From Actinocatenispora rupis (GTDB lineage Bacteria; Actinomycetota; Actinomycetes; Mycobacteriales; Micromonosporaceae): a DNA stretch of 64,000 nt. The notes beneath the pieces were generated by a model. It saw only the letters and a list, made by a program, of their open reading frames with translations, was not told the origin of the DNA and did no database searches. Positions 31,603 through 60,795 of this stretch are shown piece by piece. Location of the stretch: NCBI RefSeq assembly GCF_016861975.1, contig NZ_BOMB01000003.1:62001-126000 (forward strand), given 5' to 3'. A program made the position numbers and the translations under genes. Numbering within the stretch: position 1 is the first letter of the stretch; every line of letters begins with the position of its first letter.

Positions 31603-31626
31603 TACGCTGGCGAGAAATCGATTTCC
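31603..31626 (+). promoter_or_regulatory. LacI-type operator 1 overlapping the promoter of the 31643 gene
   Basis: GAAATCGATTTC (31614-31625) is a perfect 12-bp palindrome preceded by GA. TACGCT (31603-31608) is a good -10 box, so the operator would cover the transcription start. The core matches those at 37656 and 40573, tying this gene to the LacI regulator. Confidence 0.65.
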
Positions 31627-31642
31627 AGCGGAGGTGTCGGCG

Positions 31643-33367
31643 ATGGCCGGTGGGGTGTCGAGACGCGGGGTGATCCTGGGCGGGTTGGCGGCGGTACCGC
31701 TGGTGGCGGCCGGCGCACCCCTGGCGTACGCGGGGAGGCGCGTGACGCCGGCGGACGGTGTGGTGGAGCCGGCGAGCACGTTCTTCGCCACCGTCGACCT
31801 GCCGTACGCGGCGGAGGTGTCGACCGCGAGCGACGGCGACCTGTGGCCGTCGGCGTGGGCCCGCGACGGCGCGACCTACGCGGCGAACGGCGACGGCCGC
31901 GGCTTCTCCGACCAGCCGGCGCTCGACATCGTGGCGAACCGGATCACCGGCGCCCCACCGTCCGGCATCACGGGAGTACGCACGGCCGGCGGTGACGCGA
32001 TCGGCCCGGTGTGGTCGGATCCCGCGCAGTACAACCGGAAGCCGACCGGGATGATCGCGATCGACGGGGACGGCGACGGCACCGACGAGCTGTACCTCGC
32101 GGTCCAGGACCTCAAGTCCGGCAGCGTCGACCCGTTCGACGACGCGGCCGCCGCGAGCATCGCCCGCTCCACCGACGGCGGCGTCACCTGGACGCACACC
32201 GATGCGCCGATGTTCACCGACCACGTGTTCACCACGGTGTTCTTCCTCGACTTCGGCCAGGGTTCGGTGCACCGCAGCGTCCTCGGCCCCGACGACTCCG
32301 GCTACGTCTACGCGTACGGGCTGGACGGCAACTGGCGCACCTCGTACGCGCACACCGTGCCGGACCCGGTCGACCTGTACCTGGCGCGGGTTCCGGTCGG
32401 CTCGGTACAGGACCGGTCGGCGTGGCGGTTCTTCACCGGGCTGGCCGGCGACACTCCACAGTGGAGCGCCGACATCGGCGCGCGGCGGGCCGTCCTGCAC
32501 GACGACCGGCGCCTCTACCCGACGATCTCGAACAACCCGAAGAACGGCCCGACGAACCTCAGCGTGCTCGCCCAGGGCGGCGTGCTCTACAACCCGGGCC
32601 TGGACCGCTACCTGTACACGTCGTGGACCGAGTACACGTTCGAGTTCTACGAGGCGCCCGCGCCGTGGGGGCCGTGGACACTGTTCCTGCACAAGGACTT
32701 CGGCCCGTACCCGTGGTGGGGTGCGGCGCCCGGACCGAAGAACGGCGGCTACGCCACGACGATCCCGTCCGCGTACGTCAGCGCCGACGGCCGCACGATG
32801 TGGGTGCAGGCGAACTGGTTCGTCGGCAACGACTCCGGCCCGGCGAACTACGACTTCTCGTTGCGGCGCCTGGTGGTCACGCCGTGGCAGCCGACGACGC
32901 CCGGCAACCCGCGCGACGCGTCCGCGAACCTGGCCCGTACGGTCGCCGGCACCGTACCGGTCGACAAGACCTCGCACTACGGCAACCTCGCGTACCTCAA
33001 CGACGGGAACACCGCGCAGAGCGAGGACTCCTGGGACGGTACGGCCAAGGACTCCGACCAGTGGGGCTACACCTGGCCGCGGGCGTACCACGTGAACCGG
33101 GTCGTCTACACGACCGGGACGATGTTCGCCGACGGCGGCTGGTTCGCCCGCGACCTGCGCGTGCAGGTACGCCAGAACCACGCGTGGGTGGACGTCACCG
33201 GCGTCACCGTCGACCCGGCCTACCCGTACTCGGACGCGGCCGGCACGAACGTCACGTACACGTTCACGTTCGACGACACGTGGGGCGACGGCGTCCGGCT
33301 GTACGGCGTGCCCGGTGGCACGCAGGCGTTCACCTCGGTCGCCGAACTCGCCGTGTACTACGCCTGA
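31643..33367 (+). CDS. Secreted DUF4185-like beta-propeller glycosidase with C-terminal discoidin-type domain
   Basis: A 574-residue exported protein with a Tat-like signal (SRRGVILGGLAAVP). Residues about 45-420 form a DUF4185/five-bladed-propeller-like domain: sialidase-style SIARSTDGGVTWTHTDAP, then YLYTSWTEYTFEFYEAPAPWG, and ATTIPSAYVSADGRTMWVQ. DUF4185 contains the GH183 endo-D-arabinanases, but this copy is more divergent than the one at 39453. Residues about 425-574 (NLARTVAGTVPV ... LNDGNTAQSEDSWDG ... VRLYGVPGG) resemble an F5/8-type C sugar-binding domain. Start ATG 31643 after GGAGGTG. It carries the LacI-type operator and probably attacks the polysaccharide outside the cell. Confidence 0.65.
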   Translation: MAGGVSRRGVILGGLAAVPLVAAGAPLAYAGRRVTPADGVVEPASTFFATVDLPYAAEVSTASDGDLWPSAWARDGATYAANGDGRGFSDQPALDIVANRITGAPPSGITGVRTAGGDAIGPVWSDPAQYNRKPTGMIAIDGDGDGTDELYLAVQDLKSGSVDPFDDAAAASIARSTDGGVTWTHTDAPMFTDHVFTTVFFLDFGQGSVHRSVLGPDDSGYVYAYGLDGNWRTSYAHTVPDPVDLYLARVPVGSVQDRSAWRFFTGLAGDTPQWSADIGARRAVLHDDRRLYPTISNNPKNGPTNLSVLAQGGVLYNPGLDRYLYTSWTEYTFEFYEAPAPWGPWTLFLHKDFGPYPWWGAAPGPKNGGYATTIPSAYVSADGRTMWVQANWFVGNDSGPANYDFSLRRLVVTPWQPTTPGNPRDASANLARTVAGTVPVDKTSHYGNLAYLNDGNTAQSEDSWDGTAKDSDQWGYTWPRAYHVNRVVYTTGTMFADGGWFARDLRVQVRQNHAWVDVTGVTVDPAYPYSDAAGTNVTYTFTFDDTWGDGVRLYGVPGGTQAFTSVAELAVYYA

Positions 33368-33371
33368 CACG

Positions 33372-33405
33372 CGTTGCGGGGGGCCGGATCCGGCCCCCCG
33401 CAACG
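33372..33405. terminator. 34-bp perfect palindrome, bidirectional terminator
   Basis: CGTTGCGGGGGGCCGGA (33372-33388) is followed immediately by its exact reverse complement. It lies between the convergent secreted-enzyme and permease genes and would fold into a very stable GC hairpin in both transcripts. Confidence 0.8.
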
Positions 33406-33417
33406 GAATCCCGCGGC

Positions 33418-34278
33418 CTACTTGAAGCCGGACGTCTTGATGGACTCCACGATCCGGCGCTGGAACAGCGCGAACAGTCCGAGCGTCGGGATCGCCGCGA
33501 TGGTCGACGCGGCGAGCGTGTAGTTCCAGTTGTTGGCGTGCTCCTGCTGGAACGACGCGATGCCGAGCTGCACGACGTTCAGGTCCTGCGAGTTCGTGGC
33601 GATCAGCGGCCAGAGGAACGCGTTCCAGTTCGCGAGGAAGAACAGCACCGCGAGCGCCGCGAACACCGGCTTCGACAGCGGCAGGATGACCCGCCAGTAG
33701 ATCTGCCAGTACGAGCAGCCGTCGACGATCGCGGCGTCCTCCAGTTCGCTCGGGATCGACAGGTAGAACTGGCGCAGCAGGAAGATGCCGAACGCGTTGA
33801 AGATGGCCGGGATGATGAGCCCCGCGTACGTGTCGAGCAGGCCGAGCGTGTGCACGATCAGGAACAGCGGCACCAGGATCACCGGCGCGGTCACCAGCAG
33901 CGTGGAGAAGATCAGCAGGAACAGCGTGTCCCGCCCGGGGAACCGCAACCGGGCCAGCGCGTACGCGGCCATCGAGTGGAACCACAGCGCCACCACGGTG
34001 ACCACGACGGAGACGATGAGGCTGTTCAGCAGGTACCGGGCGAACGGCACCTGGGTGAACACGTACGTGTAGTTGGACAGGGTCGCCTTGTGCGGCAACA
34101 GGTTCGTGCTCAGTACCTCGTCGGCGCCCTTGAACGACGAGGTCACCATCCACAGCAGCGGGAAGATCGTCATCAGCGCGAGGATGGCGCCGACGGTCAG
34201 CGCGGTGGCGCGCCGGCCGCGACCGGACGGCCGGTTGACGCGTACCGCGGGGCGGGTCACCGTGTCACTTGTCGCCAT
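33418..34278 (-). CDS. Sugar ABC transporter permease, MalG type
   Basis: A 286-residue carbohydrate permease with six helices; the EAA coupling loop is EDAAIVDGCSYWQIYWRVILP (near residues 186-205, split here by its helix-turn). The C-terminal FQRRIVESIKTSGFK ends as in typical CUT1 MalG-like permeases. Its start overlaps the end of the partner permease by 14 nt. Last gene of the operon DUF2961 - binding protein - permease 1 - permease 2. The ATPase is not encoded here; a shared MsmK-like ATPase elsewhere is likely, as is common for CUT1 systems in actinomycetes. Confidence 0.9.
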   Translation of the reverse strand: MATSDTVTRPAVRVNRPSGRGRRATALTVGAILALMTIFPLLWMVTSSFKGADEVLSTNLLPHKATLSNYTYVFTQVPFARYLLNSLIVSVVVTVVALWFHSMAAYALARLRFPGRDTLFLLIFSTLLVTAPVILVPLFLIVHTLGLLDTYAGLIIPAIFNAFGIFLLRQFYLSIPSELEDAAIVDGCSYWQIYWRVILPLSKPVFAALAVLFFLANWNAFLWPLIATNSQDLNVVQLGIASFQQEHANNWNYTLAASTIAAIPTLGLFALFQRRIVESIKTSGFK

Positions 34279-35212
34279 CGCCGAACCGCCCTCCCCGGGT
34301 CAGCGCGAACAGCGCCGCCGACCAGATCAGCAGGATCACCACCAGGAACGCGCCGATCGCCGACGCGTAGCCGAACTCGCCGTACACGAACGCCTGCTGG
34401 TAGATGTAGTAGATGATCAGGGTGGTCGAGTTGGCGGGGCCACCGCTGGTCAGCACGTACAGCAGGTCGAGGCCGCCGGTCATCATCGACACGGTCGAGG
34501 TGAGCAGGATGAAGAAGCTCGTCGGCTTGAGCAGCGGCCAGGTGATGTGCCGGAACGTCTGCCACGGCCCGGCCCCGTCCAGCTTCGCCACCTCGTAGTA
34601 CTCGCGGGGGATGTCCTGGAGGCCGGCGAGGAAGATGAGCATGTAGTAGCCCATCGCGAACCAGATGGTCACGACGAGGATGCTGCCGACCGCCCACTTC
34701 GGCGTACCGAGCCAGGACGGTGCGGTGACCCCGAAGAAGCCCAGGATCCGGTCGATCACGCCGATCTGGTCGGTCAGCATGAACTTCCACACCAGCGCGA
34801 CGACGACCAGGCTCACCACGTTCGGCGCGAACAGCATGCTGCGCACCAGCCCGACGAGCGGGAAACGCTGGCGTACCAGCAGGGCCAGCGCGAGGCTCAC
34901 CACGAACAGCCCGGGGATCAGGATCACCAGGTACAGCAGGGTGGTGCGGAGGCTGTGCAGGAACAGCGGGTCGGCGAACATGCGCTCGTAGTTGCCGAGC
35001 CCGATCCACTTGTACCCGCCGAAACCGTCCACCTGGAAGAAGCCGAGCACCAGGCACGCCACCATCGGGATGCCCAGGAACAGCAGCAGCCCCAGCATGT
35101 CCGGCGCCAGGAACAGCATCGCGGCGAGCGCCTCCCGCCGCCTCCGGCTCGTCGGCCGGCGCCCGCTCGTCGTCGACGGGGCGCCCGCCGGTGCCTGCGC
35201 GACCGCGGTCAT
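34265..35212 (-). CDS. Sugar ABC transporter permease, MalF type
   Basis: A 315-residue CUT1 permease. The basic N-terminus precedes six helices, beginning AAMLFLAPDMLGLLLFLGIP; the EAA loop is EYYEVAKLDGAGPWQTFRHI. ATG 35212 overlaps the stop of the binding-protein gene (ATGA), so translation is coupled. It forms the heteromeric channel with the 33418-34278 product. Confidence 0.9.
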   Translation of the reverse strand: MTAVAQAPAGAPSTTSGRRPTSRRRREALAAMLFLAPDMLGLLLFLGIPMVACLVLGFFQVDGFGGYKWIGLGNYERMFADPLFLHSLRTTLLYLVILIPGLFVVSLALALLVRQRFPLVGLVRSMLFAPNVVSLVVVALVWKFMLTDQIGVIDRILGFFGVTAPSWLGTPKWAVGSILVVTIWFAMGYYMLIFLAGLQDIPREYYEVAKLDGAGPWQTFRHITWPLLKPTSFFILLTSTVSMMTGGLDLLYVLTSGGPANSTTLIIYYIYQQAFVYGEFGYASAIGAFLVVILLIWSAALFALTRGGRFGDGDK

Positions 35213-36546
35213 AGGATCCTGCCCCCCTCGTAGCTCTTGAGGTACGCGTCGATCTGCTTCGACGCCAGCTCGGCCTGCTGGCGCGGATCCGCGCCGGTGA
35301 GCTGGCACGCCTGGATCGCGTCGGAGATCGCCTTGTACACCACGGGTGGGTAGCGTGGCTCGCCCCGGCCGGTCGGGAAGATCTCGTCCTTGAACTTCTT
35401 CATGATCGGGTCGTCGTACCCGCCGTTGCGGGTCGCCAGCTCCAGCGCGGACTTCCGCGGCGCGATGTCGGCCTTGGCCTTGGTGCACCAGTCGACGACG
35501 CGGTCGATCGAGTCCTGCTCCATCGAACCGATCGCCCAGGCGCAGAACTTCGCCGCCGTCTCCGGGTCGCGCCCCCGCGCGTTCGCCACGAACGCCCAGC
35601 CACCCAGCACCGTCTTCGGCGTACCGCCGGGCGGGGTCGGCGGCGCGAACACCCCGTACGGGAACTTCGGCTTGCGGTGGCGGAACTCGGCGACCGACCA
35701 GATGCCCGTGTGGTATGCCGCGGCGTAGCCCTGCATGAGCGCGAGCGCGCCGTCCGCGTTGGCCGGCTCGACCCGCGGCGAGATGCCCCGCTGGATCGTC
35801 TGCTTGTACAGGTTCAGCGCGTGCACCGCGCCGGGCGAGTCGAACGCGCTGTGCTTGCCGTCCGCGGAGATCGCGTTGCCGCCGCCCTGCCACATCCACG
35901 GGTACCAGGTGAAGTTCTGGTAGTAGCCGGGGGCGGCGCAGAACACGATCGGCGGCTTCTTCGCCCGCTTCAGCTTCTCGCCGAGCGCCAGCATTTCGTC
36001 CCAGGTCGTCGGCAGGTCGCTGTCGGCGGTGACGCCGACGGACTCCATCAGCGGCTTGCTGTAGAACATGGCGAGCGGCTCGATCTCCATCGGCAGCGCG
36101 TACACCCGGTCGCCGACCAGGCGGGTGTCCATGTTCGGCCGCGAGAAGTCGGCGATCGCCTCCTTCGTCAGGTACGGCGTGAGATCGGTGAGCACGCCGG
36201 CGTTGTAGTACCGGAGGATGTCGCCTGGACTGATCAGGAAGATGTCCGGGCCCTCGTCAGCGGCGAACGCGGTGGCGAGCTTCGGCGTCCCGAGGATCGT
36301 CACGTACTGGAGGCGGATCTTGGTCTCGTGTTCCCGGTTCCACGCGGCGACCATGTCCTCGAACCACTTGCTCTGGGCGGCGAGGGTGGGATCGCCGGGG
36401 TTCGGGTTCGGCGCGTAGAAGTTCCAGAACGTCAGTTCCTTGGCACCGCCGGACTTCCCGCACCCGGACAGCAGTGCCGGCGCGCCGAGCGTGGCCGCGC
36501 CCGCGGCCGCCGCGGTGAACAGCGACCGGCGCCGGATCCCCGCCAT
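35209..36546 (-). CDS. Sugar ABC transporter substrate-binding lipoprotein
   Basis: A 445-residue family-1 solute-binding protein. The signal peptide has RRRSLF (Tat-like) and lipobox LSGC (Cys near residue 29). Lobe segments ELTFWNFYAPNPNPGD, FAADEGPDIFLISPGDIL, WDEMLALGEKLKRA and ALALMQGYAAAYHTGIW are typical. It should capture oligosaccharides released outside the cell. ATG 36546 follows the DUF2961 stop by one base, so the two are tightly co-translated. Confidence 0.9.
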   Translation of the reverse strand: MAGIRRRSLFTAAAAGAATLGAPALLSGCGKSGGAKELTFWNFYAPNPNPGDPTLAAQSKWFEDMVAAWNREHETKIRLQYVTILGTPKLATAFAADEGPDIFLISPGDILRYYNAGVLTDLTPYLTKEAIADFSRPNMDTRLVGDRVYALPMEIEPLAMFYSKPLMESVGVTADSDLPTTWDEMLALGEKLKRAKKPPIVFCAAPGYYQNFTWYPWMWQGGGNAISADGKHSAFDSPGAVHALNLYKQTIQRGISPRVEPANADGALALMQGYAAAYHTGIWSVAEFRHRKPKFPYGVFAPPTPPGGTPKTVLGGWAFVANARGRDPETAAKFCAWAIGSMEQDSIDRVVDWCTKAKADIAPRKSALELATRNGGYDDPIMKKFKDEIFPTGRGEPRYPPVVYKAISDAIQACQLTGADPRQQAELASKQIDAYLKSYEGGRIL

Positions 36547-36547
36547 G

Positions 36548-37618
<1,071 letters not shown>

Positions 37619-37655
37619 GACCCGCCTCCGACACACTGTCGACAACGATTCGCAA

Positions 37656-37673
37656 CGAGAAACCGATTTCTCG
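37656..37673. promoter_or_regulatory. LacI-type operator 2 in the divergent DUF2961/lacI-type region
   Basis: CGAGAAACCGATTTCTCG is an 18-bp palindrome with one mismatched pair and the central CG typical of LacI/GalR operators. It lies 38 bp before the DUF2961 start and 88 bp before the regulator start, so it can control both. Confidence 0.72.
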
Positions 37674-37760
37674 ATAACCTAGGTGCACCACATCGGGTCG
37701 TCAAGGGTGACCCGCCGGTTCGGTACCCGGGCGGCGGAGCCGGGGAGGTGATGGAGGACC

Positions 37761-38759
37761 ATGGTCGGCATGCCCACCATCTACGATGTCGCCCGGCACG
37801 CCGGGGTGTCACCGGCGACGGTCTCGCGCGTGCTCAACGGGCACGAGGGCGTCGACGCCGCGCTGACCGCCCGGGTGCGCGAGTCCGCGGCGACGCTCGG
37901 CTACCGGCCGAACTCGTTGGCGCGCAACCTCCGGCGCAGTACCACGAACCTGTGGGCGGTGATCATCTCCGACGTCAACAACCCGTTCTTCACCGCCGTG
38001 GTCCGCGGCGTCGAGGACGCCGGGCAGGACCTCGGATACTCGGTGGTGCTGTGCAACTCCGACGAGCAGCCCGACAAGGAGGCGCGGTACGTCACGGCCC
38101 TGCTCGCCGACCAGATCTCCGGCTTCATCGTCTCCCCCACCAGCCGTACGGCGAACATCCGGGCGCTCGTCGACGCCGGCCGCGCCGTCGTCGCCATCGA
38201 CCGCCGCCCGCGCGGGCTCGCCCTCGACACCGTGCTGGTCGACAACGAGCACGGCGCGCGCGAGGCCACCGCACACCTCATCGACCAGGGGTACGAACGG
38301 ATCGCGTGCATCACCGGCCCGTCCCGGCTGAGTACGGCCAGCCAGCGGTTGCGCGGGTTCCGCGCCGCGCTCCGCGCCGCCGGGCGTACGCCGGAGCCGG
38401 AGCTGGAGCGGCACGCCGACTTCCGCGAGCGCGGCGGGTACGAGGCGATGGCGGACCTCGCCGCCGCCCGGCCCGACGCGGTCTTCGTGGCCAACAACCT
38501 GATGACCGTCGGCGCGCTGGAGTTCCTGTCGGACAAGGGGATCCGGGTGCCGGACGAGGTCGCCGTGGTCGGCTTCGACGACGTACCGTGGGCGACGTTC
38601 ATCCGGCCGCCGCTGTCCACCGTCACCCAGCCGACGTACGAGCTGGGTCGCACCGCGGCGACGCTGCTCAAGTCGCGCATCGACGACCCGGGCCGGCCGC
38701 CGACCGTCGCGACCCTGCGCACCGAGCTGCACGTCCGCGCCAGTTCCCGCCGCCGCTGA
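37761..38759 (+). CDS. LacI/GalR-family regulator of the glycan locus
   Basis: A 332-residue regulator. HTH TIYDVARHAGVSPATVSRVL at the N-terminus, hinge helix LARNLRRSTTNL, then the periplasmic-binding-protein-like effector domain (NPFFTAVVRGVEDAG, GFIVSPTSR, VLVDNEHGAREATAHLI, FVANNLMTVGAL, VGFDDVPWATFIRPPLSTV). It is divergent from the DUF2961/ABC operon with an 18-bp palindrome between, and the same motif precedes both secreted-enzyme genes. It probably represses all of them until an oligosaccharide binds. ATG 37761 (GGAGG close upstream) or ATG 37770 could be used. Confidence 0.9.
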   Translation: MVGMPTIYDVARHAGVSPATVSRVLNGHEGVDAALTARVRESAATLGYRPNSLARNLRRSTTNLWAVIISDVNNPFFTAVVRGVEDAGQDLGYSVVLCNSDEQPDKEARYVTALLADQISGFIVSPTSRTANIRALVDAGRAVVAIDRRPRGLALDTVLVDNEHGAREATAHLIDQGYERIACITGPSRLSTASQRLRGFRAALRAAGRTPEPELERHADFRERGGYEAMADLAAARPDAVFVANNLMTVGALEFLSDKGIRVPDEVAVVGFDDVPWATFIRPPLSTVTQPTYELGRTAATLLKSRIDDPGRPPTVATLRTELHVRASSRRR

Positions 38760-38824
38760 CCGGCGTCCGCTCCCCGCCGGTGGCGCGCTGGTTCTCCGCC
38801 ACCGCCGAGGGTGGCGCGTGGCGG

Positions 38825-39364
38825 TCACCCGGCCAGGTGGCGGTGTGCGGCGGTCCAGGCGATGCGGCGGTCCAGCTCCGCCAGGTGTCCCTGCCGGGCC
38901 CAGGTCACCTGCGGCTCCCGGCCCCGCCGGGCCAGGTCACGCGCGAGGGCCGCGGTGGTCCGCTGGGCGTCGAGTACGGCGTCGGCCATGCCCGCCGGGT
39001 CCACGCCGTACGCGGCGCAGAAGGTGGCGATGCGCGCCCGGGACGAACCCGGCGACCGCCTCGTGGTACTCCCGCAGCAGCCGGCCGAACGCCCGCAGAC
39101 CCACCGGATCGACCACCTTCGCCCAGCCGGCCGGACCGCACTCCCCCGGCAGGTATCGTCGCTGCCGCTCCTCAACTACGTATACGCCAGCACCTCGCGG
39201 CCCTCGCGGTCGGCGCCGAACGCACGCGGCGCGTACCGGAAGCCGACGGCGCGCAGGTGGTCGAGCAGCGCGTGCACGGTCGGGGTCCACGGCCGCCACG
39301 GCCGGCGCACCGTGTCGCCGATCCGCACCACCCGGCGTCCGGGGTCGTCCTGGAGCACCTCCAT
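38825..39364 (-). pseudogene. Aminoglycoside-phosphotransferase-like pseudogene
   Basis: Three minus-strand frames together make a broken APH-family gene. Frame 1 from ATG 39364: MEVLQDDPG, then GDTVRRPWRPWTPTVHALLDHL and FGADREGREVLAYT, stopping at 39176. Frame 2 (about 39175-39030): ERQRRYLPGECG, LRAFGRLLREYHEAVAGFVPG. Frame 3 (about 39020-38825): RIATFCAAYGVDPAG, REPQVTWARQGHLAEL, AWTAAHRHLAG. The segment that should carry the catalytic HGDxxxxN loop and the metal-binding Asp, about 60-70 residues, is missing between frames 2 and 3. Two frameshifts plus this deletion make it non-functional. It lies inside the glycan locus, between the LacI gene and the second secreted enzyme. Confidence 0.8.
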
Positions 39365-39452
39365 CCGCCCAGCATCGGCCGGATCCCGTTGCCCCGCAAC
39401 ACTTTTCCGGTACTCCCGCATCAGCCGGCGCGGCGCCCTCCCGGGGCGGGCG

Positions 39453-40553
39453 TCAGTGCGCGAGGCCGTCGATCCGGTAGTGCATGACGCGGTAGTCGAC
39501 GTCGTCGTACCACTGGCTGACGCAGACGTGGAAGTCGTCGAACGTCGAGCCCGGCACGATGAACCCGCCGTACGGGCTGGCGACCGCGTTGCCGCCCTCG
39601 TTGCCCGGCGTGGTCGGCACGATGATGGTCTGTTCCGGTGTGGTGAACAGGTTCGAGGTGGGCAGCGGGAACACCTGCGCCCGCATCGACAGCGCATCCA
39701 TGTTGAGCCACGTGAACGCGTACTGCCCGCCCATGGCGCGGAAGCAGATCTCGCCCCACCGCCGCGCGCCGGTGATGGTGGTCGGCGGGTTGCCCCACGC
39801 CCAGGCGCCGTTCGCGTACCCCCACGGCTGGTACGCGTCGGGCACGCCGAGGCTGTCCTGGCGTACCCGGTGCAGCAGCAGGCCCGAGGTGACGTCGCGG
39901 TTGAACACCGTGGACAGCACGTAGCAGTACCCGTCGTCGGCCACCGCGTACGTCTTCTGCTGGAACTGGCCGCCGTACATGTCGCCCGGCCACAGGCACA
40001 GGTACTCCCAGGTCTCGCCGTTGTCGGTGGACCGCCAGAAGTCGCTGTGGTCGGTGCGGTAGATGACGCCGCGCATGAGGTGCATGTACATCGTGTCGCC
40101 GACGGTGAACACGTCGGACGGGATCGCCGTCGTGTAGCCACCGTCGACGGGATTGTGCGGCTCCGGTACGAGCCCGACCGCGTGCGAACCGCCGACGCTG
40201 CCGTCGATCGCGATGCCCGCGGGGCTGCCGTTGCTGGACCGCAGCCCGGTCGGCGCGCGCCAGTCCGCGGCGCCCACCGTCGCCCCGTCGAACGTGTCGC
40301 CGCAGACGAACAGCATCGAGCCGTCCGGGCAGCGCGCCGGGATGCCGAGGTCCGCCCACGGCGCCGCGTACCCGCCGGTCTCGGCCGGACCGGTCAGGTT
40401 CCTGATCTTCGTACCGCTGATCGCGTCGGGGTGGACGGTGCCGCCGGTCGCGGCGGACGCGGTGGCGGGGACGGCGAGTGCTCCCGCGGCGAGGCCGAGT
40501 CCGGCGCGCAGCACGGTACGGCGGGCGAGTGGGCGGGATGCGGATGCGGTCAT
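39453..40553 (-). CDS. Secreted DUF4185 (GH183 family) glycosidase, predicted endo-D-arabinanase
   Basis: A 366-residue exported protein with Tat signal (ARRTVLRAGLGLAAG). The rest is one DUF4185 domain: APWADLGIPARCPDGSMLFV, GDTF (residues 85-88), DWRAPTGLRSSN, YTTAIPSDVFTVGDTMYMHL, FWRSTDNGETWEY, YGGQFQQKTYAVADDGY and GNAVASPYGGFIVPGS. The family founded GH183, whose characterised members are mycobacterial and actinomycete endo-D-arabinanases with a five-bladed propeller. ATG 40553 has GGGGGA 6 nt upstream. A LacI-type palindrome covers its promoter. Substrate assignment is from family and context only. Confidence 0.8.
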   Translation of the reverse strand: MTASASRPLARRTVLRAGLGLAAGALAVPATASAATGGTVHPDAISGTKIRNLTGPAETGGYAAPWADLGIPARCPDGSMLFVCGDTFDGATVGAADWRAPTGLRSSNGSPAGIAIDGSVGGSHAVGLVPEPHNPVDGGYTTAIPSDVFTVGDTMYMHLMRGVIYRTDHSDFWRSTDNGETWEYLCLWPGDMYGGQFQQKTYAVADDGYCYVLSTVFNRDVTSGLLLHRVRQDSLGVPDAYQPWGYANGAWAWGNPPTTITGARRWGEICFRAMGGQYAFTWLNMDALSMRAQVFPLPTSNLFTTPEQTIIVPTTPGNEGGNAVASPYGGFIVPGSTFDDFHVCVSQWYDDVDYRVMHYRIDGLAH

Positions 40554-40564
40554 GACAGATCCCC

Positions 40565-40598
40565 CAATGCCGTGAGAAATCGAATTCTCACGGCATTG
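40565..40598. promoter_or_regulatory. LacI-type operator 3 upstream of the DUF4185 gene
   Basis: 14-bp perfect arms (40565-40578 and 40585-40598) around ATCGAA; the core GAGAAATCGAATTCTC matches operators 1 and 2. On the minus strand TTGCCA (40613-40608) and GAGAAT (40589-40584) form a plausible -35/-10 pair, so binding would block the promoter. Confidence 0.7.
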
Positions 40599-40656: not shown

Positions 40657-42354
40657 TCAGAAGTCGGTGGCGCGCAGATCGGTCGCGCGACCGCCGGCAC
40701 CGACCACGGTCAGGCCGCGCACCGCGCCCAGCCGTACCCGGGTCAGGCCGGCGCGGCGCAGCGCGTCCCGCAGATCCGCGCCGCCGAGCCGGTACAGCGC
40801 GACCACTGCCGGAGTGAGCGTGACCCGCAGCGTCGCGGCGTACCCGGGCGGCGCGGCCGGTACGGCACCCGCGAGAGCGGCGATCCGTTGTACCGCAACG
40901 GAAGCGGACGACGAGTCGACCTGCGCGACGCGTACCGTCTGGTGCCGGCCGGCGTCGATCACGTCCGCCCGGTACGAGTGGCCGCCGGTGCGCCAGGTGC
41001 CCACGGCGACGCGGTCGGTGCCGGCGTCGGCCCGGCGTACCGCCTCGGTCAGGGCGGCGGGGGTGAGCCGGTGCGCCGCGACGTCGGCGGCGAGGTCCGC
41101 GGCCCGGTACGCGAGCCGGCCGGACGCGACCAGGTGCGCGACGTCGCCGATCAGGTCCGCCCGTACCAGCGCGGCGCAGGTCCTTTCGACGGTCTTCCGG
41201 GTCCAGCCGGGGTCGGCGATGAGGCCGCCGAGCGCGGTCAGCACCTCGACGGGGTGGTCGTCCTCGTCGAGCCATTCGAGGTCGTACCCGCGGTCGAGCA
41301 GCCGGACCAGCGGCGCCGGATCGCTGCCCTGCCACCCCGGGCTGAACGTGACCCACTGGTACCAGCCCTGACCGTCGGGCGACGCGTGCACCGTGCACCG
41401 CACCGTCGCCGTACGGCCCGGCGCGATCGGCGGGAGCTGCGCGTGGCAGTCGCCGAGCTTCGCGCCCTCGACGCTGCCCTGGGTGAGCCGGCCGTACACG
41501 GTGCCGGGGGTGGTCGCGCGGCCGCCCTCGTTCCGGATTTTCACGGTCTCGGTGCAGCTCGATCCGTCGCAGCTGCCGGTGCCGGACACCGACACGTACC
41601 GGGCGGGCAGCGTGTCGTAGCGCTGGACGGTGGCGGCGGCGCGGCGGGCGGCGGCGACCGCGCGCGCGGCGGTGTCCCGGCCGACCGGCGTCACGTCGAG
41701 CGCCGCGTACCGGCCGGCGAGGCGCGCGTCGAGGGCGGTGACGGTGCCGTGCAGGTACAGGGTGGCGCCGGTGGAGGTGGTGACCGGGGTGACGGGCGTG
41801 CCGCCGAGGCGGGTGGCCCGGCCGGTGGCGGCGCGCGCGCCCGCCGGTACGGTGCCGAGCGCGGCGGCGAGCGCGGCCGGGCGCAGCGCGGTGCGCGGGT
41901 CGAGCCCGCCGAGCACGGACGGTGCGCCGCTCACCCAGTGCCCGGCCATGATCCCGGTACGGTCCGCGGCGAGCGACAACCACCAGCCACGGTCGCCGTC
42001 GACGTACGTGCCGCCGGCGACGGCGAGCAGCCGCGCGCTGCCGCCGGTGGGCAGCCGCAGCGTGCCGACGGTGTCGCCGGCGGCGGTCACCCGCAGGTCG
42101 ACGTGCACGACGCGGTCGCCGGCGAGCACGTCCCCGACGTACCGGAGGGCGGGTGCGCGGCGCAGCGCGGCGGTGCCGGCGCGGGCGAGCGCGGCCGGGG
42201 TGGCCGGGGCGGCGCCGCCGTGCAGGGCCGGGAGTACGACGAACTCGACGAGCAGGGCGACCACGAACGCGAGCGCGGGGCCGCCGAGGGCGAGCACCCA
42301 GGGCCACCGCCGCGACCGTACCGTGGGGACGGGGGAACCGGTCATCGCACGCAT
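40657..42354 (-). CDS. Membrane-anchored extracytoplasmic protein of unknown function
   Basis: About 565 residues from ATG 42354 (or 42345). One N-terminal helix (PWVLALGGPALAFVVALLVEFVVLPAL, split at its Pro) anchors it, the rest outside. Residues about 40-230 resemble LppX/LprG-like lipid-binding lipoproteins in general pattern (VGDVLAGDRVVHVDLRVT, GWWLSLAADRTGIMAGHWV), but this is weak. The middle (SGTGSCDGSSCTETVKIRNEG ... KLGDCHAQLPPIAPGRTATVRCTV, given here in part) looks like a CARDB/Ig-type fold with disulphides. The C-terminus is Ala/Arg/Val-rich. I do not recognise the protein; no neighbours suggest a role. Confidence 0.6.
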   Translation of the reverse strand: MRAMTGSPVPTVRSRRWPWVLALGGPALAFVVALLVEFVVLPALHGGAAPATPAALARAGTAALRRAPALRYVGDVLAGDRVVHVDLRVTAAGDTVGTLRLPTGGSARLLAVAGGTYVDGDRGWWLSLAADRTGIMAGHWVSGAPSVLGGLDPRTALRPAALAAALGTVPAGARAATGRATRLGGTPVTPVTTSTGATLYLHGTVTALDARLAGRYAALDVTPVGRDTAARAVAAARRAAATVQRYDTLPARYVSVSGTGSCDGSSCTETVKIRNEGGRATTPGTVYGRLTQGSVEGAKLGDCHAQLPPIAPGRTATVRCTVHASPDGQGWYQWVTFSPGWQGSDPAPLVRLLDRGYDLEWLDEDDHPVEVLTALGGLIADPGWTRKTVERTCAALVRADLIGDVAHLVASGRLAYRAADLAADVAAHRLTPAALTEAVRRADAGTDRVAVGTWRTGGHSYRADVIDAGRHQTVRVAQVDSSSASVAVQRIAALAGAVPAAPPGYAATLRVTLTPAVVALYRLGGADLRDALRRAGLTRVRLGAVRGLTVVGAGGRATDLRATDF

Positions 42355-51175: not shown

Positions 51176-52093
51176 ATGAGTACCAGCACGGACCTCGGCG
51201 GCGTCGTCGTCGCCACCCCGCTGCCGTACGTGGCGGACGGCGCGGCGCCGGCCGGTCTCGCCGTCGACTACGACCGGTACGCGGAGCACTGCCGGTGGCT
51301 GGTGGACAACGGCTGCCACGGCGTCGGCCCGAACGGTTCGCTCGGCGAGTACTCGTCGCTCACGGACGAGGAGCGGCGGCGGGTGGCGCGGACCGCGGTC
51401 GAGGCGGTGCGCGGGGACGGCATCGTGGTGGTGGGCGTGCACGGGGTCGGCTGGCACCAGGCGAAGCACTGGGCGGAACTGGCGGCCGAGGACGGCGCGG
51501 ACGGGGTGCTGTGCCTGCCGCCGACGATCTACCGGGCCAACCGCGGCGAGGTCGTCGCGCACTACGAGGCGGTCGCGTCGGTCGGGCTGCCCGTCATGGT
51601 CTACAACAACCCGTACGACACGAAGGTCGACCTGACGCCGGACCTGCTGGCCGAGCTGGCGCAGATCGACAACGTGGTGGCGGTCAAGGAGTTCTCCGGC
51701 GACGTCCGGCGGGTGTCGGCGATCCGCGAGGCGGCGCCCGGCCTGGCCGTGATCGCCGGCGCCGACGACGTCACCGTGGAGGCGCTGCTGATGGGCGCGA
51801 CCGGCTGGTTCGCCGGCTTCCCCAACGTCTTCCCCGCCGAGTCCGTCGCCCTGTACGAGCTGGCCCGCGCGGGCGACCTCGCCGAGGCGCGCCGCCGGTA
51901 CGAGCCGCTGCTCGCGGCGTTCCGGTGGGACTCGCGGACCGAGTTCGTTCAGGCGATCAAGCTCGGCATGGAGCTGGTCGGCCGGTACGGCGGGCCCTGC
52001 CGTCCGCCCCGCGGCCCGCTCACCCCCGAGCACGACGCGCAGGTACGCGAGGCGATGGCGCGCGCGGTCGCGGCCGTACGGGGTGGTGCGTGA
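51176..52093 (+). CDS. DapA-family lyase/deaminase (possible 4-hydroxy-pyrroline-2-carboxylate deaminase)
   Basis: A 305-residue TIM-barrel class I aldolase-type enzyme: GPNGSLGEYSSLTDEER (substrate carboxylate loop), MVYNNPYD (catalytic Tyr near 142) and AVKEFSGD with Schiff-base Lys171. The DapA family includes the deaminase that converts pyrroline-4-hydroxy-2-carboxylate to alpha-ketoglutarate semialdehyde in trans-4-hydroxyproline catabolism; the overlapping epimerase gene makes this the favoured role, but family membership alone does not prove it. Stop and next start overlap (TGATG). Confidence 0.8.
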   Translation: MSTSTDLGGVVVATPLPYVADGAAPAGLAVDYDRYAEHCRWLVDNGCHGVGPNGSLGEYSSLTDEERRRVARTAVEAVRGDGIVVVGVHGVGWHQAKHWAELAAEDGADGVLCLPPTIYRANRGEVVAHYEAVASVGLPVMVYNNPYDTKVDLTPDLLAELAQIDNVVAVKEFSGDVRRVSAIREAAPGLAVIAGADDVTVEALLMGATGWFAGFPNVFPAESVALYELARAGDLAEARRRYEPLLAAFRWDSRTEFVQAIKLGMELVGRYGGPCRPPRGPLTPEHDAQVREAMARAVAAVRGGA

Positions 52094-53094
52094 TGCGCTC
52101 GGTACGCACGATCAGCGCGGTCGACTCGCACACCGAGGGCATGCCGACCCGGGTGGTGACCGGCGGGGTGGCGCCGGTGCCGGGCGACACGATGGCCGAG
52201 CGCCGGGTGTACTTCGCCGAGCACCTGGACGACCTGCGCCGGTTCCTGGTGGACGAGCCGCGCGGGCACGCCGCGATGTCCGGCGCGATCCTGCAACCGC
52301 CGACCCGGCCGGACGCCGACTGGGGCGTGCTGTACGTGGAGGTCAGCGGGCTGCTGCCGATGTGCGGCCACGGCACGATCGGGGTCGCCACGGTGCTCGT
52401 GGAGACCGGCATGGTGACCGTGACCGAACCCGAGACCCTGGTACGCCTGGACACGCCGGCCGGTCTGGTGGAGGCCCGCGTCGCCGTACGCGACGGTCAC
52501 GCGGAACGGGTGACACTGCGCAACGTCGACTCGTTCCTGGTGGAGCGGGACGCGGTGGTGGACGTCCCGGAGCTGGGCCGGATCACGTACGACATGGCGT
52601 ACGGCGGGAACTTCTACGCGATCCTCGACCTGGCCGCGGTGGGCGTGCCGTTCGACCGGTCCCGCAAGGACGACATCCTGTCGGCGGGGCTGGCCGTGAT
52701 GTCCGCGGTCAACCGGCAGCGCCGGCCGGCCCACCCGCTCGACCCGGCGATCGGCGGCTGCAAGCACGTGCAGTTCCTCGCACCCGGCTCGGACGCCCGG
52801 CACTCCCGCAACGCGATGGTCATCCACCCGGGCTGGTTCGACCGCTCCCCCTGCGGTACGGGCACGTCGGCGCGGATGGCGCAGCTGCACGCGCGCGGCG
52901 AGCTGGCCGTCGGCGCCGAGTTCGCGAACGAGTCCCTGCTGGGTACGGAGTTCGTCGGGCGGGTGGTGGACACGACCACGGTCGGTGGGCTGCCGGCCGT
53001 CGTACCGGAGTTCTCGGGGCGGGCGTGGATCACCGGCACGGCGAACTACCTGCTGGACCCGACCGACCCGTTCCCGGCGGGTTTCACGCTCTGA
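52093..53094 (+). CDS. Proline racemase family enzyme, probable 4-hydroxyproline 2-epimerase
   Basis: A 333-residue PLP-independent racemase. Both catalytic cysteines are present: MCGHGTIG (Cys91) and SPCGTGTSA (Cys254), so it should be a true two-base racemase/epimerase, not the single-Cys dehydratase. SHTEGMPTRVVTGG, GHAAMSGAIL and YGGNFYAILDL are family motifs. It probably converts trans-4-hydroxy-L-proline to cis-4-hydroxy-D-proline. ATG overlaps the stop of the DapA-family gene. The next pathway enzyme, a D-hydroxyproline oxidase or dehydrogenase, and the semialdehyde dehydrogenase are not in the window. Confidence 0.85.
   Translation: MRSVRTISAVDSHTEGMPTRVVTGGVAPVPGDTMAERRVYFAEHLDDLRRFLVDEPRGHAAMSGAILQPPTRPDADWGVLYVEVSGLLPMCGHGTIGVATVLVETGMVTVTEPETLVRLDTPAGLVEARVAVRDGHAERVTLRNVDSFLVERDAVVDVPELGRITYDMAYGGNFYAILDLAAVGVPFDRSRKDDILSAGLAVMSAVNRQRRPAHPLDPAIGGCKHVQFLAPGSDARHSRNAMVIHPGWFDRSPCGTGTSARMAQLHARGELAVGAEFANESLLGTEFVGRVVDTTTVGGLPAVVPEFSGRAWITGTANYLLDPTDPFPAGFTL

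Positions 53095-58524: not shown

Positions 58525-60795
<2,271 letters not shown>

What the first reader, a model, noticed from the sequence alone, without database searches (positions are those of the whole stretch)
31603..40598. Candidate D-arabinan utilisation locus (two DUF4185, one DUF2961, ABC importer, LacI)
Seen: secreted DUF4185-like proteins at 31643 and 39453, a cytoplasmic DUF2961 protein co-transcribed with a CUT1 sugar importer, and a LacI regulator. Known: DUF4185 founded GH183 (endo-D-arabinanases) and DUF2961 founded GH172, which includes exo-D-arabinofuranosidases. Inference: secreted endo-cleavage, import of oligo-D-arabinofuranosides and cytoplasmic exo-cleavage, so the organism could scavenge arabinogalactan or lipoarabinomannan of other actinobacteria, or recycle its own. 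I know of no described regulon combining these families with a dedicated importer.
Basis: partly seen in the sequence, partly recalled or inferred. Interest (0 to 1): 0.88.

Follow-up and report, generated by a model that had tools for sequence, protein, structure and literature searches.

The report
LacI-controlled D-arabinan scavenging gene locus
A soil actinomycete carries a gene set that most likely cuts the D-arabinose polymer found in mycobacterial-type cell walls, imports the pieces and breaks them down inside the cell; the pathway type is already published, but one secreted protein family and a shared DNA switch in front of the genes look new.

Summary
The DUF2961 protein is an ExoMA1-type GH172 exo-alpha-D-arabinofuranosidase (E 1.4e-159 to 8ic8; both catalytic Glu; the Asn separating D-Araf from D-Fruf enzymes). 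The 39453 protein is a GH183-type DUF4185 protein with the catalytic residues. The 31643 protein (P1) scores below Pfam's DUF4185 cut-off, but its predicted fold is nearest to the GH183 enzyme EndoMA1. The endo/import/exo scheme is not new: PMC10509167 described it in Microbacterium in 2023, importer included, so the novelty claim is wrong.

Two parts my literature searches did not find: (1) a palindrome (core GAAATCGATTTC) before all three transcription units, recurring upstream of cluster genes in 29 of 35 other GH172+LacI loci (119 permuted palindromes: at most 2 each); (2) P1 as a recurrent partner: 12 of 13 genomes with a strong P1 hit (394 sampled) also have a strong ExoMA1-type GH172 hit.

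The organism is an Actinocatenispora relative without Emb arabinosyltransferases, which favours scavenging. Against a complete pathway: it lacks the isomerase/kinase/GH116/importer cluster of three sister species (same site shown for two). Nothing has been assayed.

The parts
31612..31627 (.). LacI-type operator GAGAAATCGATTTCCA, 15 nt before the inferred ATG of P1
   Evidence: A. comari has a site without mismatch before its P1
31643..33367 (+). P1: secreted (Tat-like leader, read by eye) divergent DUF4185/GH183-like propeller protein with C-terminal beta-rich domain
   Evidence: (top structural match EndoMA1, Foldseek E 4e-18)
33418..34278 (-). CUT1 sugar ABC permease (PermB)
   Evidence: BPD_transp_1 E 1.1e-17
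34265..35119 (-). CUT1 sugar ABC permease (PermA)
   Evidence: BPD_transp_1 E 2.3e-19
35209..36546 (-). substrate-binding lipoprotein (RRRSLF...LSGC leader)
   Evidence: SBP_bac_1 E 7.7e-37; no solved relative at E up to 1e-20
36548..37618 (-). cytoplasmic GH172 exo-alpha-D-arabinofuranosidase (ExoMA1 type); E235, E257 and N265 in the 365-aa numbering of P0002
37657..37672 (.). LacI-type operator GAGAAACCGATTTCTC between lacI and GH172
   Evidence: found in all four genus members held (0-1 mismatch)
37761..38759 (+). LacI/RbsR-like repressor
   Evidence: RbsR is the best NCBIfam model, below its cut-off
39453..40553 (-). secreted (Tat-like leader, read by eye) DUF4185/GH183-type endo-D-arabinanase; D117, D135, E317 in the 415-aa numbering of P0003
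40574..40589 (.). LacI-type operator GAGAAATCGAATTCTC before the DUF4185 gene
   Evidence: the same 16 bases before the unlinked orthologue in three sister species

Best explanation
A D-arabinan scavenging regulon. Two secreted GH183-type propeller proteins (39453, and probably P1 at 31643) cut the D-arabinan of arabinogalactan or lipoarabinomannan from other bacteria. A CUT1 ABC importer takes up oligo-D-arabinofuranosides. A cytoplasmic GH172 enzyme removes terminal alpha-D-arabinofuranose. A LacI-family repressor binding GAAATCGATTTC-type palindromes silences all three units until a D-arabinan breakdown product appears. Shown here by comparison: enzyme families, catalytic residues, gene order, shared operators. 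Inferred: secretion, catalysis, imported ligand, repressor binding and effector, ecological role. How this species metabolises the D-arabinose is not known.
For: GH172 matches ExoMA1 (E 1.4e-159) far better than the fructofuranosidase alphaFFase1 (E 2e-43) and has Asn at the specificity position. The 39453 protein keeps D117/D135 and E317, invariant in the 16 DUF4185 proteins of alignment A2, aligned to D39/D56 of 8an0; its low-confidence model's best PDB match is EndoMA1. P1's model: best match EndoMA1. Related Streptomyces, Jiangella and Micromonosporaceae loci add FucI-like isomerase, FGGY kinase and in part GH116. Operators before all three units; the core motif upstream of cluster genes in 29 of 35 other loci, 59 of 62 sites upstream. 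In three sister species the unlinked DUF4185 gene keeps the operator. No Emb match. An ExoMA2-like GH116 lies elsewhere in the genome.
Against: No FucI-type isomerase match in this genome; the sister species' cluster with isomerase, kinase, GH116 and importer is replaced here by three other genes. In P1 the third catalytic Glu appears to be an invariant Gln. The binding protein's ligand is not predictable. No biochemistry for any of these proteins. The GH116 gene on contig C10 has no operator on its contig at up to 2 mismatches, nor has the second DUF4185 gene on C40. Six of the 35 loci lack the core motif in the windows tested.
Confidence: 0.85

Rival explanations
1. Fructan or difructose-anhydride utilisation: the GH172 enzyme acts on alpha-D-fructofuranosides and the importer takes fructo-oligosaccharides, as in the Bifidobacterium dentium operon (LacI, GH32, GH172, ABC).
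For: B. dentium has a LacI + GH32 + DUF2961 + ABC operon (passages).
Against: Asn at the position that is Gly299 in alphaFFase1; much better match to ExoMA1; no GH32 match among the nine proteins scanned at 30.5-42.5 kb, and a DUF4185 partner instead.
Confidence: 0.04
2. Turnover of the organism's own D-arabinose-containing envelope glycan rather than scavenging.
For: Mycobacteria and Nocardia carry GH183/GH172 homologues; a role in wall modification is proposed for the mycobacterial GH183 enzymes. I recall that Micromonosporaceae whole-cell hydrolysates contain arabinose; which enantiomer and glycan I do not know.
Against: No Emb-family (PF04602) match in this genome; 2 of 41 genomes searched have one. 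The locus has an importer and repressor layout, and its GH172 is patchy: 14 of 61 genomes searched, own included, match the query, some only by distant relatives. Other arabinosyltransferase families were not tested.
Confidence: 0.08
3. Scavenging of short D-arabinofuranose glycans other than mycobacterial wall, such as type-IV pilin glycans or O-antigens.
For: Such alpha-D-Araf glycans exist, and a subset of characterised GH183/GH172 enzymes act on P. aeruginosa PA7 pili.
Against: Secreted enzymes of an endo-acting family suggest a polymer; D-arabinan of actinobacteria is a likely soil source (inference).
Confidence: 0.1

Closest known systems
D-arabinan PUL of Microbacterium arabinogalactanolyticum (PMC10509167)
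   Same: Secreted GH183, ABC importer with SBP_bac family protein, cytoplasmic GH172 of the same clade; proposed endo / import / exo pathway, induced by D-arabinose and mycobacterial wall extract.
   Different: There: four DUF4185 genes, GH116 and isomerase/kinase in one cluster; no LacI regulator is mentioned ('laci' 0 occurrences in the main text). Here: one clear DUF4185 plus P1, LacI with shared operators, no FucI-type isomerase found in the genome, GH116 unlinked. Whether one of its two uncharacterised DUF4185 proteins is of P1 type I could not tell.
PUL42 of Dysgonomonas gadei (PMC10115798)
   Same: DUF4185 and DUF2961 enzymes degrading D-arabinan.
   Different: Bacteroidota locus type; no CUT1 importer or LacI operator of this kind in the passages read.
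B. dentium alphaFFase1 operon (PMC8605356)
   Same: LacI + GH172 + ABC transporter genes together.
   Different: GH32 partner; GH172 with Gly at the specificity position and D-fructofuranosidase activity.
EndoMA1 (8hhv/8ic1), GH183
   Same: Best Foldseek match of both secreted proteins; for P1 the alignment spans nearly the whole protein.
   Different: 15% identity to P1 in the structural alignment; P1 appears to have Gln for Glu243.

Membership tests
GH172 (exo-alpha-D-arabinofuranosidase clade) | DUF2961 domain, nucleophile and acid/base Glu (E291/E270 of alphaFFase1) | tested here: met
   E257 and E235 aligned
GH172 (exo-alpha-D-arabinofuranosidase clade) | Asn (ExoMA1 Asn253) instead of Gly299 at subsite -1 | tested here: met
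   N265
GH172 (exo-alpha-D-arabinofuranosidase clade) | activity on alpha-D-Araf | not testable with these tools
   needs assay
GH183 (39453 protein) | DUF4185 domain above curated cut-off | tested here: met
   174 bits against 39.5
GH183 (39453 protein) | catalytic Asp pair and supporting Glu | tested here: met
   D117, D135, E317; in alignment A3 D117 drops from the invariant list because three short gene calls begin after it
GH183 (39453 protein) | endo-D-arabinanase activity | not testable with these tools
   needs assay
GH183 (P1) | DUF4185 domain above curated cut-off | tested here: not met
   window protein: no hmmscan match, 35.8 bits in the six-frame search. Relatives: 4 of 12 match at E up to 1; of 6, 2 are above 39.5 bits, 2 just below, 2 without match
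GH183 (P1) | propeller fold of EndoMA1 | tested here: met
   top PDB match EndoMA1, E 4e-18; model mean pLDDT 70.5; TM-scores only 0.42-0.50, rmsd 12 A
GH183 (P1) | catalytic Asp pair 18 residues apart and third Glu | tested here: inconclusive
   D69 and D87 invariant in 12 of 12 with the same spacing; Gln314 appears at the Glu site; DgGH4185b broadly kept activity without its Glu
LacI regulon | shared palindromic operator before member units, conserved in relatives | tested here: met
LacI regulon | repressor binds the operator and is released by a pathway sugar | not testable with these tools
   needs EMSA and ligand test

The most novel reading that the evidence does not exclude
P1 is a new GH183 subfamily, or a new glycoside hydrolase family of the same clan, with a distinct D-arabinan specificity (for example branch points, capped ends or lipoarabinomannan). 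It belongs to a previously undescribed, widely conserved LacI/GAAATCGATTTC regulon with which many non-mycolate actinomycetes feed on the D-arabinan of their neighbours.
Probability: 0.5. Interest if true: 0.65.

Novelty: new variant of a known kind. Interest (0 to 1): 0.55.

Why it matters
D-arabinan is the signature polymer of mycobacterial-type walls, and its main degrading enzyme families were described only in 2023. A sequence-defined operator lets one list the D-arabinan regulon in many actinomycete genomes, and so find unrecognised enzymes. P1 is the first candidate: a secreted GH183-like family at the edge of Pfam's DUF4185 model that keeps company with D-arabinan genes. Common soil genera such as Streptomyces and Jiangella appear equipped to eat this polymer, which bears on how mycobacterial wall carbon is recycled in soil and on enzyme tools for wall analysis.

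Tried and rejected
PDB and NCBIfam searches to identify the binding protein's ligand gave nothing specific. A literature search for the PDB name EatA (9mz5, a DUF4185 relative matched at E 1.7e-11) found no relevant paper. I considered a mycolate-ester attack role for the neighbour of the C40 paralogue (PE-PPE/cutinase fold); its solved relatives are weak (E about 0.002), so it stays a lead. Six FGGY kinase matches in this genome: I looked at the surroundings of three of them on two contigs, which showed no isomerase of the cluster's kind, and assigned none to D-arabinose. I rejected 'assembly gap' as the reason for the missing isomerase cluster: both flanks lie on one contig, with three called genes between them that match nothing in the sister stretches.

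Weak points of my counts. GAAATCGATTTC was chosen after seeing the PWM scan, whose ten training sites came from Actinocatenispora; the A. comari locus L008 was left out of the test. The 35 loci are those of 79 with both a GH172 and a LacI hit at E up to 1e-8, weak LacI relatives included. Upstream windows were 350 bases before to 60 after each called start of a cluster gene. Among the other 44 GH172 loci 3 have a site. Searches scored at most 3 and 5 candidates per genome; they list 17 and 36 of 394 genomes at E up to 0.001, from which I kept the strong ones (13 and 23). The co-occurrence P value ignores shared ancestry. Gene calls in loci come from a home-made caller, so starts are approximate. 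The 80 loci are the best of 315 relatives. The search had no positive control; one search had.
Full report
WHAT IS THERE. In 31.6-40.6 kb three transcription units meet. P1 (31643-33367, plus) runs convergent to GH172-SBP-permease-permease (37618 down to 33418, minus), lacI (37761-38759, plus) is divergent from GH172, and a DUF4185 gene (40553 down to 39453, minus) follows. P1 and the DUF4185 protein have twin-arginine-like leaders, the SBP has a lipoprotein leader, and GH172 has none (read by eye). None of the nine proteins scanned there is an ABC ATPase.

THE GH172 ENZYME. phmmer gives 534 bits to 8ic8 (ExoMA1, exo-alpha-D-arabinofuranosidase), 152 to alphaFFase1, and 110-115 to two further chains of the family, 4kq7 and 8ah3. 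E235 and E257 align with the acid/base and nucleophile of alphaFFase1 (E270, E291; PMC8605356, passages). PMC10509167 (outline, sections 8-9 and passages) names Asn253 of ExoMA1 against Gly299 of alphaFFase1 as the residue that decides D-Araf against D-Fruf; the window protein has Asn (N265, alignment).

THE DUF4185 PROTEIN AT 39453. Pfam 174 bits. Against 8an0 (AraH2 of M. tuberculosis, name; E 1.8e-14) its D117 and D135 align with D39 and D56 by my count in the alignment; the paper names residues of these numbers as catalytic (PMC10115798, passages; the printed sentence pairs the numbers in a garbled way). D117, D135 and E317 are invariant in the 16 sequences of A2. Its model is of low confidence (mean pLDDT 57.3, pTM 0.65); its best PDB match is EndoMA1, E 5.8e-14.

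P1 AT 31643. No Pfam match by hmmscan for the window protein; among 12 family members, 4 match DUF4185 at E up to 1, the best being 7.9e-14. Of six P1 relatives, four match at 39.0, 39.1, 44.2 and 56.4 bits (cut-off 39.5) and two do not match. Profile against profile, P1 matches the DUF4185 alignment at 98.3% probability over residues 134-351. Its model (mean pLDDT 70.5, pTM 0.67) has EndoMA1 as best of 698 matches at E up to 10, E 4e-18, over 563 alignment columns; 8an0 is rank 14 with TM-score 0.62 on the target. The TM-scores to EndoMA1 (0.42-0.50) and rmsd (12 A) are poor, perhaps because of domain placement. D69 and D87 are invariant in 12 of 12, with the spacing of 18 seen in EndoMA1 (D33, D51). 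Where EndoMA1 has Glu243, P1 seems to have an invariant Gln314 (weak alignment). E243Q nearly abolished EndoMA1 activity, but the Glu change in DgGH4185b was broadly tolerated. P1 could be an endo-D-arabinanase of other specificity, or a binding protein.

P1 AND GH172 TRAVEL TOGETHER. In 394 genomes of the class, 17 have any P1 match at E up to 0.001 and 36 any GH172 match. Of these, 13 have a strong P1 hit (at least 350 bits) and 23 a strong GH172 hit (at least 430 bits, at least 60% identity); 12 of the 13 are in both sets (hypergeometric 7e-16, not corrected for ancestry). The exception is G188, which has a distant GH172. In 10 of the 13 genomes a GH172 relative or a DUF4185 gene lies in the same stretch as P1 (in G240 the neighbouring GH172 is of another clade, in G133 only DUF4185 and LacI were seen on P1's contig); in the stretches taken for G188, G221 and G148 none was seen. 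Of the 80 loci, all chosen for GH172, 13 have a called P1 gene.

CONTEXT ELSEWHERE. In Streptomyces (e.g. L024) FGGY kinase - FucI-like isomerase - DUF4185 - P1 run on one strand, divergent from GH172-SBP-permease-permease. In Jiangella (L080) isomerase and kinase flank the cluster; in a same-family genome (G004, L116) GH116, isomerase, kinase and a canonical DUF4185 protein (387 bits) do. This would complete the chain to D-ribulose phosphate (family knowledge). Not every P1 or GH172 locus has all of these genes in the stretch held.

THE OPERATOR. GAGAAANCGNTTTCTC with up to 3 mismatches occurs three times in the 64-kb window (0.37 expected; 3 of 100 shuffles reached three), and the three places are before P1, between lacI and GH172, and before DUF4185. 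In the genus (up to 2 mismatches: 10, 10, 7 and 5 sites in four genomes; reversed-pattern control 0, 1, 1, 0) sites stand before GH172 in all four genomes and before P1 in the two where I saw P1. They also stand before the DUF4185 orthologue (82%) in three sisters, where it is unlinked; before an apparently secreted GH172-like gene here and its relative in A. comari; and between the kinase/isomerase and second-importer genes of the three sisters. Other listed sites, among them C18, C35, C48, C49 and C56 here, lie by genes without a match to the cluster, apart from another LacI gene on C48. Outside the genus, GAAATCGATTTC with up to 1 mismatch lies upstream of cluster genes in 29 of 35 loci (exact in 23); 59 of 62 such sites are in upstream windows that make up 14% of the sequence; 119 permuted palindromes reach at most 2 loci. 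Of the other 44 GH172 loci 3 have a site. The LacI protein is nearest to RbsR models, below their cut-offs. Binding is inferred.

SCAVENGING OR RECYCLING. PF04602 (Emb) has no match in this genome; 2 of 41 genomes searched do, and the control genome C. glutamicum rings. Other arabinosyltransferases were not tested.

WHAT IS MISSING HERE. No FucI-like isomerase by protein or family search. In G002 and G003 one site carries lacI, GH116, isomerase, kinase and a second CUT1 importer; here the same flanks on contig C1 enclose three other called genes. In A. comari the stretch held shows GH116, isomerase, kinase and importer with one of these flanks. An ExoMA2-like GH116 exists here on C10: best solved match exo-beta-D-arabinofuranosidase, E 8.5e-119, with the catalytic and substrate residues (E431, D557, H446, R483) conserved by my reading of the alignment. 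The fate of D-arabinose in this species is open.

LITERATURE. The pathway, importer included, is in PMC10509167. For the operator and P1, the searches (listings) and the passages and sections read of three papers gave no description; the library lacks most subscription papers, and no supplementary files were read.

VERDICT. A well-supported D-arabinan locus, of a kind published in 2023; new, as far as these searches go, are the conserved operator/regulon and P1, both computational.

Noticed in passing
L110:9315-11227 (contig C40 of the window's genome): A second DUF4185 protein, 69% identical to the 39453 protein, lies 32 nt from a PE-PPE/cutinase-fold esterase gene on the same strand; possibly an enzyme pair against mycolylated arabinan.
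   Followed up: partly
L112:3075-10548 (contig C17): Apparently secreted GH172-like gene with an operator before it, split between two frames here (intact 910-aa relative in A. comari, L185:3396-6128), followed by a CUT2-type importer and a GH43-like gene.
   Followed up: partly
L197:3000-5473 against L191:1077-12469: An eight-gene D-arabinan cluster of sister species is replaced by three other genes at the same site in the window's species.
   Followed up: yes
L018, L023, L032, L036, L039, L040, L046-L050, L052, L054, L057-L061, L063-L072: ExoMA1-type GH172 at 59-68% identity in Chloroflexota, Bacillota and Chthonomonas relatives; one search found the operator in 3 of the 44 loci without a LacI hit. 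A Virgibacillus locus (L036) has it next to a DUF4185 gene.
   Followed up: no
L111:8919-16740 (contig C1): DUF5005/weak DUF4185-like gene with a GntR regulator, a CUT1 importer and a GH38-like gene: a separate sugar locus.
   Followed up: no
40657-42297: 546-aa protein without Pfam or NCBIfam match directly upstream of the DUF4185 gene; a 38% relative lies near the GH172-like operon on C17.
   Followed up: no
58546-60795: 749-aa protein with two Terpene_syn_C_2 stretches (geosmin-synthase-like layout, recalled).
   Followed up: no
51176-53094: DHDPS-family gene followed by a proline racemase family gene with overlapping ends: probable hydroxyproline catabolism pair (recalled).
   Followed up: no
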